NCBI GenBank assembly: GCA_023954475.1
Contig: JAMLHW010000001.1
Coordinates: forward strand, 310,001 to 374,000
Direction of reading: 5' to 3'
From: Anaerolineae bacterium
GTDB lineage: Bacteria > Chloroflexota > Anaerolineae > Promineifilales > Promineifilaceae
DNA length: 64,000 nt
Made by a program: the position numbers and the translations under genes. The first letter of the stretch is position 1; each line of letters opens with the position of its first letter. Below the pieces are notes generated by a model that ran no database searches, was not told the DNA's origin, and was given only the letters and a program-made list of their open reading frames with translations. This document shows, piece after piece, positions 41,582-46,869 of this stretch.

Positions 41582-44023
41582 ATGAAACACGAGTCGGATG
41601 CACAGCGCAACTATATTGGTCTCCTGATCGGCATTCTTCTCGTCGCCTTCTTCCTGCGCGTCCACACCCTAGACACCACGCCGCCCGGCATGCACTACGA
41701 CGAAGGGTTCAACAGCCTCGACGCCCTCGACCTGCTGCGTAACGGCAATTTCCAGGTTTTCTACGCCAAAAACAACGGACGTGAACCGCTGCACATCCTC
41801 GTCAACGCCCTGTTTATCGCCCTGACCGGCACAGCGCCGTGGGTGCTGCGCTACGCGACGGCACTCGTCGGCGTGCTGGCTGTGCCCATCGTCTACCGTA
41901 CGGCGCACGCTGTCGTGCCGCGTCGCGCGTGGCGCACGCCGGTCGCATTGCTGGCGGCGGCTGTGCTGGCGACGACGATTTGGCATGTCGAATTCAGCCG
42001 CTTCATTTTGCGTGCCGTCTACCTCGTGCCGCTGTCGGCGCTGGCCGTATGGCGTTTCTGGGTGCATTGGCAGCGGGGATCGCCGCCGCGCCGCTTTGTC
42101 TGGAGCGGCCTCTTTCTCGGCCTGAGCCTGTATACGTATATTCCGGCGCGACTATTGCCGGTCGTCTTTGTCATCCCGGCAGCTCTGGCACTATTGCAAC
42201 GCGATACAGGGCGACGGAAAGCGTTGGCCGGCGGCTTGATCGTAACATTGGCGACGGCCTTCCTCGTTTTCCTGCCGTTGGGTATCTATTTCGTCAATAA
42301 TCCGGAGGCGTTTGCCGAGCGCATGTCGCAAACGGTGGCGATTGAGGCGACGGATGTGGGCAGTTCGGCCGAATCGCTCACAACCAACATCATCGGCACA
42401 GCCCGCATGTTTTTCGACGCCGGCGATCGGGATTTCTGGCACAATTTGCCCGGACGCCCCGTTTTCGATCCGCTCGTCGCGATTGGGTTTGCAGTCGGCG
42501 TAATGGTCGCGTTGTGGAACTGGCGCAAGGCGTGGGCGCAGCTGTTGCTCGTCTGGCTCACCGTCATGCTGCTGCCGATGACGCTCAGCGACGATGTACC
42601 CAAGTCGATCCGGGCGATTGGGGCAGTACCGCCTGCCTTAATTCTGGCGGGAACCGGATTATGGTGGATTTGGCACAGGCTGACGCGCCGCCGACAGCTA
42701 GCGGTGGCGTGGCCGGTGTTGCTCGTCTTGTTCGTCAGCGGCAGCTTGACGGCACGCGATTATTTTCAGCGTTGGGCGGCGGTGGCTGAGGTGCGGGAAG
42801 GGTATGGTATCGAATACAATTTCGGCCGAAACATGATCGCCCTCAGTGCCGACCGTGATGTTGTCGTGCCGGGCGAGATTTTCGCCCACCCGACCATTCA
42901 ATATCTGCTCACAACCCGGTTTGAGCCGTTTACGGAGGACCAGACGCTGGCGCCGACGCGCCCAACAACATTCCTGTACCCGGACGGCGTCTGCCGCCTC
43001 AACCGCAGCATGGTGCTGCTGCATGCCGACGTGGACGGATCGGGCGTCATTCGCATCATTCACCCGCAGGATGTGCCGTTCACGCTGTGGCTGCGTGCAG
43101 CGGATGGTGAGGCGCGCTTCCTCGATGCGCAAGGCTACAATCGCGTTTACGAAATCGATGAACGAACAGATGCGGCTGTGGACGACAATGCGCAGGCGAC
43201 GGGCGCGACATTTGACAAGCAGATTTGTCTGACCGGCATGACGACCGATGAGCGCGGTTTTCGGCCGAATGAGACCGCTGCCGTCACATTGCATTGGGAA
43301 AAACTGGACCCGGACGCACCACCGGTCGTTGCCGTTGCCCATCTGATCGCGCCGGACGGCAGTGTCGCTGGCGACCCGGCGACCCAACCGCTGCCTGATG
43401 AATGGGAGCCGGGTACGACGGCGACGACGCAGCATGAATTCACATTGCCGCCCGATGCACCCAGCGGCATTTACCATATTGATGTGGAAGTGGTGGATTC
43501 GGCCGAAAAGCGCAATCTCGAACACGTCAGCGATCAGGGCGTGCCGTTTGGCCCAACCGCTCGCAGCGGCAACATCGCTGTGTTTGCACCGGCCGTTGCC
43601 CTGCAACCGCTTGCACTGACATGGGACGCACCGACGTCTATCGCGCTGACCGGCTACCAGTTACCGTCGGGCCGCACCGGTGAGCCGATTGTCATCACGC
43701 TGGCATGGGAATCGATGGCCCCAATCGCGCAAGATGCCACGGTGTTTATCCACATTGAAAATGCTGACGGCAACAGCGTGGCACAACGCGATGCGCAGCC
43801 GTTGGACGGGCATGCACCGACATCGCAGTGGCATCCGGGGGATGTCTGGTTTGACACGCACAGCATTTCGGCCGAAACCCCTTTGCCGCCCGGAACCTAT
43901 CGCGTGGCGTTCGGATTATACGATTGGATGACAGGTGATCGCTTGCCGCTCTTTGATGCTGATGGGCAGCGCGTACAAGATGACCACGTCTACATTCCGG
44001 AACCATTGATCATCCGTGAATGA
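41582..44023 (+). CDS. GT39-like membrane glycosyltransferase with two beta-sandwich modules
   Basis: The 813-residue protein has a first membrane span, then the GT-C loop TPPGMHYDEGFNSLDALDLL with the catalytic-type Asp-Glu, and NNGREPLHILVNALFIALTG, followed by about eleven more spans to residue 400. Residues about 405-530 form a soluble domain; 535-660 contain one beta-sandwich (AAVTLHWEKLDPDAPPVVAVAHLIAPDG) and 675-813 a second (IVITLAWESMAPIAQDATVFIHIENADGN... RVAFGLYDWMTGDRL). Similar modules end the two other GT-C proteins in the window. It stands alone, divergent from fic. There is no clear ribosome site before ATG 41582. Confidence 0.8.
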   Translation: MKHESDAQRNYIGLLIGILLVAFFLRVHTLDTTPPGMHYDEGFNSLDALDLLRNGNFQVFYAKNNGREPLHILVNALFIALTGTAPWVLRYATALVGVLAVPIVYRTAHAVVPRRAWRTPVALLAAAVLATTIWHVEFSRFILRAVYLVPLSALAVWRFWVHWQRGSPPRRFVWSGLFLGLSLYTYIPARLLPVVFVIPAALALLQRDTGRRKALAGGLIVTLATAFLVFLPLGIYFVNNPEAFAERMSQTVAIEATDVGSSAESLTTNIIGTARMFFDAGDRDFWHNLPGRPVFDPLVAIGFAVGVMVALWNWRKAWAQLLLVWLTVMLLPMTLSDDVPKSIRAIGAVPPALILAGTGLWWIWHRLTRRRQLAVAWPVLLVLFVSGSLTARDYFQRWAAVAEVREGYGIEYNFGRNMIALSADRDVVVPGEIFAHPTIQYLLTTRFEPFTEDQTLAPTRPTTFLYPDGVCRLNRSMVLLHADVDGSGVIRIIHPQDVPFTLWLRAADGEARFLDAQGYNRVYEIDERTDAAVDDNAQATGATFDKQICLTGMTTDERGFRPNETAAVTLHWEKLDPDAPPVVAVAHLIAPDGSVAGDPATQPLPDEWEPGTTATTQHEFTLPPDAPSGIYHIDVEVVDSAEKRNLEHVSDQGVPFGPTARSGNIAVFAPAVALQPLALTWDAPTSIALTGYQLPSGRTGEPIVITLAWESMAPIAQDATVFIHIENADGNSVAQRDAQPLDGHAPTSQWHPGDVWFDTHSISAETPLPPGTYRVAFGLYDWMTGDRLPLFDADGQRVQDDHVYIPEPLIIRE

Positions 44024-44191
44024 TTGCAGTCGGCCGTCTAGTGCGGGGGAATCGGGTATTGTTGCCGGCACAATGCGCGTCACAATCATTTTCTCATGAT
44101 TGTTAGGTGCAACCGACACTCGACTTCCCACTGAAGATTCCCGTTTCGCGAACTTTTCACCGGAAAAAAGTGTTAGAAATTGATTTTGCGA

Positions 44192-44221
44192 TTGACATCT
44201 GCTTCCCGACACGACTATACT
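44192..44221 (+). promoter_or_regulatory. Strong sigma-70-type promoter
   Basis: TTGACA (44192-44197) and TATACT (44216-44221) are separated by 18 bp. Transcription would start near 44228, almost at the ATG of a short open frame. The promoter drives either the downstream SWIM gene through an attenuator or a short stand-alone RNA. Confidence 0.8.
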
Positions 44222-44227
44222 AGAGAC

Positions 44228-44326
44228 ATGAGCATTTTTGAAAACATCCCCACAGTTATGCTCTCATTTTTTGAAGCACGCTTGCCGCGTGCTTTTTTGT
44301 TTTCTATTTCCAAAACTCAGGCTTAG
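44228..44326 (+). CDS. Possible 32-residue leader peptide
   Basis: An ATG eight bases after a strong -10 opens a frame of 32 codons that begins MSIFENIPTV, is Phe-rich and ends just before the ribosome site of the SWIM gene (stop 44324-44326, AAGGAG 44326-44331). The terminator hairpin at 44274-44298 lies inside the frame, so translation would disrupt it. This layout is that of a translated leader controlling attenuation. It may equally be a chance frame over an untranslated leader or small RNA. Confidence 0.4.
   Translation: MSIFENIPTVMLSFFEARLPRAFLFSISKTQA
44274..44298 (+). terminator. Rho-independent terminator upstream of the SWIM gene (attenuator candidate)
   Basis: AAGCACGC (44274-44281) and GCGTGCTT (44287-44294) form an 8-bp stem with a 5-base loop, directly followed by a run of six T (44293-44298). 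It sits about 50 nt after the predicted start site and 40 bp before the SWIM gene. An upstream GAGCAT/ATGCTC pair could form a competing structure. Confidence 0.85.
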
Positions 44327-44338
44327 AAGGAGATTCAA

Positions 44339-44575
44339 ATGGACTACGCGTTAATTGGAAAGATTGAAAAAGCCAAGATTTATGCTGAAGAACCGCAACG
44401 AATCCACTTTGCAGGATTTACGGTGCGTATTGACGGTGATCACAGTTATCACACGGTGAACTTCGCTAATGAGGGTGAACGATCGTGGCAATGCGATTGC
44501 GGCTTTTTCCAAACGCGCGGTTATTGTAGTCACACGATGGCCATGGAGCGTGTCCTGGGTGATATGCTCGACTGA
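44339..44575 (+). CDS. Small SWIM zinc-finger protein
   Basis: The 78-residue protein ends in a SWIM-type zinc finger, CDCGFFQTRGYCSHTMAMERVL, with the CxCxnCxH ligand pattern (residues about 57-68). The preceding 50 residues are beta-rich (RIHFAGFTVRIDGDHSYHTVNF). SWIM domains bind DNA or protein and usually sit in larger proteins such as SWI2/SNF2 helicases; a free-standing copy of this size is uncommon. It has a good AAGGAG site, a strong promoter with attenuator in front and its own terminator behind, so it is an independently regulated unit. Confidence 0.85.
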   Translation: MDYALIGKIEKAKIYAEEPQRIHFAGFTVRIDGDHSYHTVNFANEGERSWQCDCGFFQTRGYCSHTMAMERVLGDMLD

Positions 44576-44618
44576 GTCATTGTGGCCGAAGACAGGTCGC
44601 ACACACAAACCAATTGAC

Positions 44619-44651
44619 AGGGCTGCCTTTTAAGGCGGCCTTGTTTGTTTT
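44619..44651 (+). terminator. Terminator after the SWIM gene
   Basis: AGGGCTGCCTT (44619-44629) pairs with AAGGCGGCCTT (44632-44642), including two G-U pairs, followed by TTGTTTGTTTT to 44651. It lies about 45 bp after the SWIM stop codon and acts on rightward transcripts. Confidence 0.8.
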
Positions 44652-44674: not shown

Positions 44675-45397
44675 TTATGTCTGTGGTCGCAAGACGGCTT
44701 CGACCATGTATTCGCGGACGCCCAAATCGACAAAGCCGACTGATTGTGCTGCTTCGGCCGAAAAATCATCCCCTTCTTTCACCGTGAGCAGTGGAATACG
44801 CCCTTGATCGACAATGTGCCCGCTCAACGCCGCAACGATGCTCTCTGCCCATGCGGTGCGGCGTGATTTGTTATCAAAGGTCAGCGCCATGTCGGCAAAG
44901 TGGTTGATTTGCCAATTGATCGATGCGACGGCGGCGCGCTGGTTCTGATGACGGATGACGTAGCTCGGTAGGCCGTTGCTGGCGGTTTCGTGGGTGACGA
45001 GCACGTTGAGTATCGGCCGATAACGTCCCTGATCCAAAACCAGCACCTTGTATTCCTCTTCCGCAAATATGTCGAATATGCCCATCACCAGTGGCATGTA
45101 CGCTTCCGGAATATTGAGAATCAGCGGCGATCCGGGAATGAGGCTATGGTACAGAATGGCGGCGCTCTCGTCGAGATGGTGGATCGGTAACCGCATCGTT
45201 ACCAGCGGTCGAAATAAATCGTATCCCGTCCGCGATTGGCACACATACCCGATGGCGCGCGGCGCATTCGGCCGATACGTCGTGATTTGTGTGCGTGCGT
45301 CGTCGTATTGCAGCGCGTAATAAACCGCCCGCGCATCGGCCGGATCACGTTCGTCGAGCAAATGCCGCATCGCGCGGCGGCTGTCAGTCAGATTCAC
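44675..45397 (-). CDS. GNAT-like acetyltransferase
   Basis: The 240-residue protein has a poorly conserved N-terminal half (DARAVYYALQYDDARTQITTYRPN) and a C-terminal GNAT-like core of the FR47/GCN5-related type: SRRTAWAESIVAALSGHIVDQGRIPLLTVKEGDDFSAEAAQSVGFVDLGVREYMVEAVL, where the last strand and GF motif match the acetyl-CoA-binding fold. The classical Q/RxxGxG/A loop is not clear (SRRTAWAES stands in its place). The substrate is unknown. Confidence 0.6.
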   Translation of the reverse strand: MNLTDSRRAMRHLLDERDPADARAVYYALQYDDARTQITTYRPNAPRAIGYVCQSRTGYDLFRPLVTMRLPIHHLDESAAILYHSLIPGSPLILNIPEAYMPLVMGIFDIFAEEEYKVLVLDQGRYRPILNVLVTHETASNGLPSYVIRHQNQRAAVASINWQINHFADMALTFDNKSRRTAWAESIVAALSGHIVDQGRIPLLTVKEGDDFSAEAAQSVGFVDLGVREYMVEAVLRPQT

Positions 45398-45464: not shown

Positions 45465-46463
45465 CTACAGTTGAAACGCGCCCGGCTCCGGCTTGTTATC
45501 CAGCACCGCTTCGATCTGCGCCATCACATCATCGTCAAGCTGTTCAACGATAGCCATTGCCTTCATGTTTTCTTCGACCTGCGACACGCGTGACGCGCCG
45601 GTGATCACCGTGCTCACATTCGGATTCTTGAGACACCAGGCAATCGCCAGTTGCGCCATCGAAACGCCCAATTCATCAGCAATTGGCGTCAGTTCACGCA
45701 CCTTCTGGATGCGCGCCTGGCCCTCTTCGCTGAACACCATCTCTTTCAGCCATTCGTAGCCCGGCAGATTGACCCGTGAATCGTCCGGCACTTCGTCATT
45801 GTACTTGCCGGTGAGTACACCGGATGCCAGCGGCGACCAAATTGTCGTACCCAAACCGACCTCGCGGTAGACGCGAGCGTATTCAACTTCAACCCGTTCG
45901 CGATGGAACATGTGGTATTGTGGTTGTTCCATCGTTGGCGGAAGCAAATTGTATTGCCGGGCGATCATGTGTGCTTCCATGATCTGCTGCGCTGACCATT
46001 CCGATGTGCCCCAATAGAGCACTTTGCCCTGGCGAATCAGGTCATTCATCGCCCATACCGTTTCTTCAATGGGCGTGTTCGGGTCTGGGCGGTGGCAGAA
46101 ATAGAGGTCGAGATAATCGACTTGCAAGCGGTTCATCGCCGCGTGACATGCGTCATAAATGTGCTTGCGGCTCAGACCACGTTGGGTCGGTTTGCTACCG
46201 CCCCAATAGACTTTGCTGGAGACGATAAATGAGTCGCGTGCCCAACCCTGGCGTTGCAAGATTTCGCCCATGATTGTTTCTGACTTGCCGGCGGCATATG
46301 CTTCGGCATTGTCAAAAAAGTTGACACCGGCGTCATAGGCGGCGACCATACACGCTTCGCCGCGTTCAACATCCAGTTGATTGCCAAAAGAGACCCACGA
46401 TCCGAAAGAAAGGGCGCTGACTTGTAGACCTGATCGTCCAAGTCGACGATATTCCATATCCAT
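45465..46463 (-). CDS. Aldo/keto reductase, Kv-beta-like
   Basis: The 332-residue TIM-barrel oxidoreductase has the AKR catalytic tetrad context: [19 protein letters not shown] (Asp, Tyr), [11 protein letters not shown] (Lys) and [18 protein letters not shown] (His). The NADPH-binding end is [17 protein letters not shown]. Similarity to voltage-gated potassium channel beta subunits is suggested by [25 protein letters not shown] and by [19 protein letters not shown]. It reduces aldehydes or ketones with NADPH; the substrate is unknown. ATG 46463 is chosen, seven bases after AAGGAG. Confidence 0.93.
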
Positions 46464-46869
46464 GAATAAACTCCTTGTTGAAATGCCAATTGTCAATAGT
46501 GAACGGTGATGGAGGGATGCCTTTCACTATGTGTTTTGTTGTTAACCGTGTTCTGTGAGGCAAAAAAAAGCTCCGCATGACGGAGATTATCTGTATTGTA
46601 ACACAAAATGAGTACGAAAAAATCGGCCGAAAGTCCAGTTGATCCCCATTTGCTCTGCGTTTATCCTGATAGTTCGTCGTCATTTCCAACACAATTCCTA
46701 CCCGGGAAAGGTAAAATACAAGATTCTCGTCAACTAAACGTCCGGCAAAGGAGGTGCCGACCAGTTACGCTGATCTGAAGAAGGTGTCCTCGATTTCGGA
46801 CTGCTAGACACTGTATTTCGGAACAACAAACGCCGAAATCCCACATCCGAAATCCAATATGCAGGAGAG
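46464..46869. promoter_or_regulatory. Divergent intergenic region with a leftward terminator and a structured leader
   Basis: This 406-bp gap holds no gene. A leftward Rho-independent terminator (CTCCG/CGGAG stem with a T8 tail on the minus strand) lies at 46562-46585, within the presumed leader of the aldo-keto reductase, with a TACAAT-like -10 just upstream of it. One TCGGCCGA copy lies near 46623. On the right, two ATTTCGG arms (within 46792-46800 and 46815-46821) face two CCGAAAT arms (46833-46839 and within 46846-46854), allowing alternative hairpins directly before the ABC exporter start. Confidence 0.55.
46562..46585 (-). terminator. Rho-independent terminator, leftward
   Basis: On the minus strand CTCCG (46581-46585) and CGGAG (46571-46575) form a short stem with a 5-base loop, followed after one base by eight T (46562-46569). 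It lies 100 bp upstream of the aldo-keto reductase ATG, so it would attenuate that gene unless the promoter lies downstream. Confidence 0.6.

What the first reader, a model, noticed from the sequence alone, without database searches (positions are those of the whole stretch)
44192..44575. Strong promoter, attenuator-like leader and a free-standing SWIM protein
TTGACA-18-TATACT drives a leader that holds a 32-codon Phe-rich frame, an internal Rho-independent terminator and, just upstream of it, a possible competing GAGCAT/ATGCTC stem, all before a 78-residue SWIM zinc-finger protein with its own terminator. This is a self-contained, conditionally expressed unit, or alternatively a short RNA of about 70 nt with a separate downstream gene. 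A SWIM domain as a protein of its own is unusual.
Basis: partly seen in the sequence, partly recalled or inferred. Interest (0 to 1): 0.65.

Follow-up and report, generated by a model that had tools for sequence, protein, structure and literature searches.

The report
Peptide-gated switch before SWIM zinc-finger gene
A small zinc-finger gene found across most of the bacterial phylum Chloroflexota sits behind a built-in stop signal that begins right where a tiny upstream peptide gene ends, so whether ribosomes translate that peptide probably decides whether the zinc-finger gene is switched on.

Summary
Relatives turn this into a conserved regulatory unit. The SWIM gene is mostly single-copy (250/297 genomes of the class, 160/201 of the phylum). 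In 44 family leaders the first ATG lies 6-7 nt after the -10 box (probably leaderless), and its stop falls within -15..+10 nt of the terminator stem in 40/44 (other frames 0/44 and 8/44; shuffles average 9.7). A short frame ending at a terminator precedes 90/145 SWIM genes but only 6/644 other genes. No antiterminator or amino-acid run is conserved. The stem carries a locus-specific GCACG/CGTGC core (73/118 versus 6/302 elsewhere). Best reading: a pyrBI-like attenuator, in which a ribosome at the end of the leader frame masks the terminator and lets polymerase reach the SWIM gene. Signal and SWIM function are unknown. The window is a variant whose leader frame runs through the terminator to the SWIM ribosome-binding site. 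The GAGCAT/ATGCTC stem does not overlap the terminator and is not conserved.

The parts
44192..44221 (+). sigma-70 type promoter TTGACA-18-TATACT
   Evidence: 11/12; a promoter of at least 10/12 at the same place in 102 of 108 analysed loci
44228..44326 (+). leader reading frame (uORF), 32 codons; its A is at the canonical +1 position, 6 nt after the -10 box; the stop lies at the SWIM ribosome-binding site
   Evidence: ATG offset 6 in 39 and 7 in 5 of 44 family loci
44230..44263 (+). GAGCAT/ATGCTC stem inside the leader frame; specific to this window, does not overlap the terminator
44273..44302 (+). intrinsic terminator (stem 44273-44295 plus U-tract) with the conserved GCACG/CGTGC core
   Evidence: core in 73/118 SWIM terminators and 6/302 others
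44327..44332 (+). Shine-Dalgarno AAGGAG of the SWIM gene, directly after the leader-frame stop
44339..44575 (+). 78-aa free-standing SWIM zinc-finger protein (CxC...CxHxxA)
   Evidence: zinc ligands C52, C54, C63, H65 in 59 of 59 aligned proteins; predicted fold pLDDT 90.6
44616..44645 (+). terminator after the SWIM gene
   Evidence: terminator-like site within 150 nt after SWIM in 54 of 78 named loci

Best explanation
The 44192-44338 leader is a translation-gated transcription attenuator for the SWIM gene. Transcription starts at or next to the leader ATG, so the leader frame is probably translated as a leaderless message. In nearly all family relatives the frame ends on the 5' arm of an intrinsic terminator; in the window it runs through the terminator and ends at the SWIM ribosome-binding site. 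A ribosome that is on, or has just reached, the end of this frame covers the 5' arm when RNA polymerase has copied the 3' arm. The hairpin then cannot form and polymerase continues into the SWIM gene. If no ribosome is there in time, the hairpin forms and a short RNA of about 70 nt is released. Because the terminator lies within about the first 100 nt, where ribosomes usually lag behind polymerase, the default is probably 'off', and read-through should follow slow or paused polymerase or a ribosome that lingers. Shown here by comparison: the conserved frame, its coupling to the terminator, the lack of a conserved antiterminator, the lack of another promoter. Inferred: the start site, the ribosome block, the direction of control, the default state. 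Unknown: the signal, and what the SWIM protein does.
For: Frame test in 44 family leaders: no in-frame stop before -15 in 44/44, first stop at -15..+10 of the stem in 40/44; frames +1 and +2 give 0/44 and 8/44; shuffled leaders average 9.7, maximum 18 in 1000. A 26-nt ribosome footprint centred on the stop would cover at least 4 nt of the stem in 36/44, and in 4 more, the window included, the frame runs into or through the hairpin (footprint size from passages of PMC13236596). uORF ending at a terminator: 90 of 145 SWIM genes, 6 of 644 other genes in the same loci. Outside the family, 27 of 48 such frames have a Shine-Dalgarno-like 4-mer, 6.4 expected. No second promoter in 101 of 103. Pairing of the leader with the terminator 5' arm is at chance (9.33 observed, 9.45 shuffled in the family). 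In E. coli a terminator 5 bp after a stop codon falls from about 90% to under 10% efficiency, and suppression ends when the distance exceeds 27 nt (passages and abstract of PMC4824070); a closely following ribosome suppresses the pyrL terminator (passages of PMC5021804).
Against: No expression data. The window is one of four family exceptions whose stop is not at the start of the hairpin. Codon evidence is weak: pooled pN/pS 0.56 from non-independent pairs, and several pairs near 1. Terminators in the first 100 bp of a coding region often work in spite of ribosomes (abstract of PMC4824070), so the block needs pausing, and no pause site was identified. 55 of 145 SWIM genes did not pass the automatic test, and several lineages (L211-L213, L216, L218) show no recognisable leader. 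Conserved stem sequence is not explained by a pure ribosome block.
Confidence: 0.62

Rival explanations
1. Classical or antibiotic-type uORF attenuator (ilvB, whiB7 type): a ribosome stalled inside the frame frees an antiterminator, so stalling, not completion, turns the SWIM gene on.
For: The order uORF - terminator - small metal-binding protein resembles whiB7 (passages of PMC11550727). The window has a stable upstream stem.
Against: No segment pairing with the terminator arms above chance in 41 family and 44 other leaders; no conserved regulatory codon run; no conserved upstream structure.
Confidence: 0.12
2. The leader is mainly a small-peptide or small-RNA gene with its own terminator; SWIM is expressed by constant leaky read-through without control by translation.
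For: Leaky terminators are common (recalled). N-terminal codons of the frame are alike in places (MSG, MRVF).
Against: Peptide sequence is hardly conserved while its stop stays at the hairpin; family frames from 10 to 34 codons keep this coupling.
Confidence: 0.16
3. The conserved GCACG/CGTGC hairpin is a binding site (as RNA, or as a DNA palindrome) for a protein, possibly the SWIM protein itself, which stabilises or blocks the terminator: autogenous control laid over the uORF.
For: Core in 73/118 SWIM terminators against 6/302 elsewhere in the named loci; a stricter hairpin pattern found only at the SWIM locus in 6 of 6 relatives, and at 2 places in the own genome. Invariant basic residues K8, K11, R21 in the SWIM protein.
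Against: No binding data; the stem may be conserved only because paired changes are slow; no solved relative found by sequence or fold.
Confidence: 0.1

Closest known systems
pyrBI (pyrL) attenuator of E. coli
   Same: Leader frame overlaps or abuts an intrinsic terminator; a closely following ribosome suppresses it; no antiterminator needed (passages of PMC4824070 and PMC5021804). In the window the frame passes the terminator; in pyrBI the terminator also lies within the leader frame.
   Different: Leader frame leaderless by prediction in this family; in most relatives the stop is at the start of the hairpin; the controlled gene is a SWIM protein, not pyrimidine synthesis; UTP control not tested; stem sequence conserved.
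whiB7/wblC uORF attenuator of actinobacteria
   Same: uORF, intrinsic terminator, then a gene for a small metal-binding protein (WhiB as a metal-binding protein is recalled).
   Different: whiB7 uses an antiterminator and is induced when uORF translation is disrupted (passages of PMC11550727); no antiterminator found here. Proteins unrelated.
ilvB1/ilvBNC branched-chain amino-acid attenuators
   Same: uORF plus terminator in a short leader.
   Different: They need regulatory codons and two exclusive folds (passages of PMC13236596); neither is conserved here.
Leaderless uORFs of mycobacteria (Cys-rich candidates)
   Same: Leaderless short frames in front of a gene, proposed as attenuators (passages of PMC4633059).
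   Different: No Cys runs here; here the stop-to-terminator distance is what is conserved.
Shu2/SWS1 SWIM proteins
   Same: CXC...Xn...CXHXXA motif (passages of PMC6316741): met in the window and, with A68, in 56 of 59 aligned proteins.
   Different: Free-standing 78-aa bacterial protein, no known recombinase partner; relation by motif only.

Membership tests
SWIM zinc finger (Pfam PF04434) | CxC...CxH zinc-binding signature above the Pfam gathering score | tested here: met
   28.0 bits against 19.6, E 1.6e-6; ligands invariant in 59/59
Shu2/SWS1 family | CXC...Xn...CXHXXA motif | tested here: met
   C52, C54, C63, H65, A68; motif definition from PMC6316741
Shu2/SWS1 family | binding to a RecA/RAD51 paralogue and function in recombination | not testable with these tools
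   no conserved gene neighbour to suggest it
pyrBI-type ribosome-suppressed attenuator | leader frame whose ribosome can overlap the terminator | tested here: met
   geometry in 40/44 family loci; translation itself is inferred
pyrBI-type ribosome-suppressed attenuator | terminator inside the leader frame, stop codon downstream of it | tested here: inconclusive
   true for the window (stop +51); 3 further family loci have stops at +24 to +35; not for the other 40 of 44
pyrBI-type ribosome-suppressed attenuator | nucleotide-sensitive polymerase pausing in the leader | not tested
   needs in vitro transcription
whiB7 / ilvB type attenuator | antiterminator that excludes the terminator | tested here: not met
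   leader-arm pairing at chance in 41 + 44 leaders (contiguous helices only)
amino-acid attenuator | run of regulatory codons | tested here: not met
   no common residue run by inspection; Phe 29/750 in the other family frames
Rfam families | match at gathering score | tested here: not met
   0 matches in the window

The most novel reading that the evidence does not exclude
A phylum-wide autogenous switch: the SWIM protein recognises the sequence-conserved hairpin in its own leader, and the leaderless uORF ribosome competes with it, so that the cell sets the SWIM level by comparing ribosome supply with SWIM protein at a single terminator.
Probability: 0.1. Interest if true: 0.78.

Novelty: new variant of a known kind. 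Interest (0 to 1): 0.57.

Why it matters
It would be a translation-gated attenuator kept across an ancient phylum in front of a nearly universal protein of unknown function. My paper searches found nothing in print on it. The minimal design (start codon at +1, stop codon on the terminator, no antiterminator) would be a clean natural test of how ribosomes suppress intrinsic terminators near a promoter. It also gives a handle on what a free-standing SWIM protein does, since whatever switches the leader on is likely to be what the protein answers to.

Tried and rejected
GAGCAT/ATGCTC as an antiterminator: rejected, no overlap with the terminator and no conservation. A general antiterminator: leader pairing with either terminator arm is at chance. 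Upstream structure as a pause hairpin: a first run with plain shuffles suggested structure (mean z -1.05); with dinucleotide shuffles and representatives it shrank to -0.48 in the family, 0.11 in others, -0.04 in controls, so I do not claim it. Phe or other amino-acid sensing: no conserved run. Function from neighbours: apart from the SWIM gene itself and an antisense frame of it (22 loci), no gene family lies near SWIM in more than 20 of 80 named loci; the commonest is a putative membrane protein about 450 nt downstream on the same strand. Function from fusions: long open frames around SWIM in GC-rich genomes are not fusions. Fold search: the single-sequence model was poor (pLDDT 40); the model from 59 sequences is good (90.6), but Foldseek and VIA gave nothing above noise (best E 0.56, best Z 2.9); no PDB sequence match. 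NCBIfam gave only a weak partial match to a Snf2 helicase model. Rfam: none. The second hairpin-pattern hit in the own genome (C12:342472) has no SWIM-like gene near it; not followed further. Two placeholder regions of 10 bases were useless.

Rows dropped: of the 47 family genomes with a match, G021 is a partial match and was not fetched; of 46 fetched loci, L053 was not found by my frame search and L010 has only 11 nt upstream, leaving 44. Of 110 distinct upstream regions, L070 and L137 gave no hairpin, leaving 108; automatic hairpin choice was visibly wrong in a few of these outside the family (for example L062, L063, L113). Several relatives outside the class that show the architecture by eye (L172, L180, L181, L182) were missed by the automatic terminator test; the test was not tuned afterwards.

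Full report
What is there. The window reads TTGACA-18-TATACT (44192-44221), six bases, then ATG at 44228, which opens a frame of 32 codons ending in TAG at 44324-44326; an intrinsic terminator stem lies inside that frame at 44273-44295; AAGGAG (44327-44332) follows, and the SWIM gene starts at 44339 and ends at 44575, with a terminator at 44616-44645. The protein matches the Pfam SWIM finger above its cut-off. The window belongs to a Chloroflexota genome of the Anaerolineae: the named contigs with the closest SWIM proteins are MAGs called Chloroflexi, Anaerolineae and Ardenticatenaceae.

The protein. It has one match in each of 47 of 52 genomes of the family (17 of 17 good ones), and is present in 51 of 56 of the order, 250 of 297 sampled genomes of the class and 160 of 201 of the phylum; some lineages have two copies. 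In 59 aligned proteins the four zinc ligands, K8, K11, Y15, R21 and E70 are invariant and the alanine of CXHXXA is kept in 56. With that alignment the fold is predicted with confidence (pLDDT 90.6: helix 3-17, three strands, zinc knuckle, helix 64-77), but no solved structure resembles it clearly. Its neighbours are not conserved and no fusion was found in the 8 longest frames looked at.

The leader is conserved and is read as a frame. In the window's family the first ATG after the -10 box lies 6 nt (39 loci) or 7 nt (5 loci) downstream in all 44 analysable loci, which puts its A at the canonical start of transcription; these messages are therefore probably leaderless. From that ATG the frame is open up to 15 nt before the terminator in 44 of 44, and its stop falls within -15..+10 nt of the stem in 40 of 44; frame +1 gives 0 of 44 and frame +2 gives 8 of 44; shuffled leaders give 9.7 on average and never more than 18. 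These loci are related, so the numbers are not independent, but the frames range from 10 to 34 codons and still end at the hairpin. Outside the family the frame often has its own ribosome-binding site: 27 of 48 have a Shine-Dalgarno-like 4-mer, 6.4 expected, and typical peptides begin MRVF or MSG. Substitution pattern adds little (pooled pN/pS 0.56).

Control genes. With one and the same script, a short frame ending at a terminator within 130 nt upstream was found for 90 of 145 SWIM genes (39/44 family, 35/65 named others, 16/36 further class and phylum loci) and for 6 of 644 other genes in the named loci. By eye, after the fact, the same layout is seen in distant members: L171 and L172 (genomes of about 1.5 Mb, of Dehalococcoides size, inferred), L181, L182, L187. 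In L185, as in the window, the frame runs through the hairpin and ends at the SWIM ribosome-binding site.

The SWIM gene depends on read-through. The distance from hairpin to SWIM start is 47 nt at the median (103 loci with less than 130 nt), and a second promoter of at least 9/12 is found in 2 of 103 and not in the window. So either the terminator is leaky or it is controlled.

How it is likely to work. No segment of the leader pairs with either arm of the terminator above chance and no upstream structure is conserved, so the two-fold switch of whiB7 or ilvB is unlikely. What is conserved is the place of the stop codon. A 26-nt footprint around the stop (size from PMC13236596, passages) would cover at least 4 nt of the stem in 36 of 44, and the frame runs into or through the hairpin in 4 more. 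In E. coli a stop codon 5 bp before a terminator cuts termination from about 90% to under 10%, the effect ends beyond 27 nt, and it needs translation; terminators in the first 100 bp of a coding region work unless pausing couples the ribosome to polymerase (PMC4824070, abstract and passages); the pyrBI leader is the known case (PMC5021804, passages). I therefore propose a pyrBI-like attenuator: termination by default, read-through when the ribosome reaches the end of the leader frame in time or stays there. The signal is not known.

What this does not explain. The stem of the terminator is itself conserved: GCACG with CGTGC in 73 of 118 SWIM terminators but in 6 of 302 terminator-like sites elsewhere in the named loci; a stricter pattern is found only at the SWIM locus in 6 of 6 relatives, and at two places in the own genome. 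This points to recognition of the hairpin or of the DNA palindrome by something; the SWIM protein is the obvious candidate, untested.

A further layer. In an estimated 45% of 93 non-redundant upstream regions a 13-bp element GTAGGnnAATCGT lies before the -35 box, most often 2-3, 12-13 or 23-24 bp away, that is, in steps of about one helical turn, as expected for an activator site; together with the promoter it is found only at the SWIM locus in the 4 of 10 genomes that match the pattern. The window lacks it (best score 6.8 against 12-19 for good sites).

Novelty. The mode of action would be a known kind; the combination (leaderless frame, stop on the terminator, no antiterminator, conserved stem, SWIM gene, phylum-wide) I did not find in print. 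Searches: 'SWIM zinc finger' with Chloroflexi (0 papers), 'zinc finger SWIM' with Dehalococcoides (0), 'SWIM zinc finger' with bacteria and small protein (2, of which I read passages of one), Chloroflexi with transcription attenuation and leader peptide (0). Only open-licence PubMed Central papers were searched.

Noticed in passing
relatives L012, L016-L022, L026, L044-L048, L066, L086, L116 and others; absent in the window (44120-44190): Conserved element GTAGGnnAATCGT upstream of the SWIM promoter at distances of about 2-3, 12-13 and 23-24 bp from the -35 box (helical phasing): probable activator site.
   Followed up: partly
L211, L212, L213, L216, L218: GC-rich lineages whose SWIM gene has no recognisable terminator or leader frame.
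   Followed up: no
genomes of family f20 and some others: Two SWIM matches per genome instead of one; not compared.
   Followed up: no
PMC5552922: A SWIM zinc-finger protein (Deide_18730) is listed among radiation-response genes of Deinococcus deserti (passage); a lead towards DNA damage, not a test.
   Followed up: no
44083-44104: Inverted repeat ACAATCA...TGATTGT downstream of the upstream glycosyltransferase gene, without a clear T-tract.
   Followed up: no
44675-45397 (-), 45465-46466 (-), 41582-44023 (+): Neighbours: weak FR47-like acetyltransferase match (19.5 bits, below the Pfam cut-off), aldo/keto reductase, PMT_2 glycosyltransferase; the SWIM gene converges with the first of these.
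   Followed up: no
44228-44251 and L126: Window leader peptide start MSIFENIP resembles MRVFEKIP of a distant relative; may be chance.
   Followed up: no
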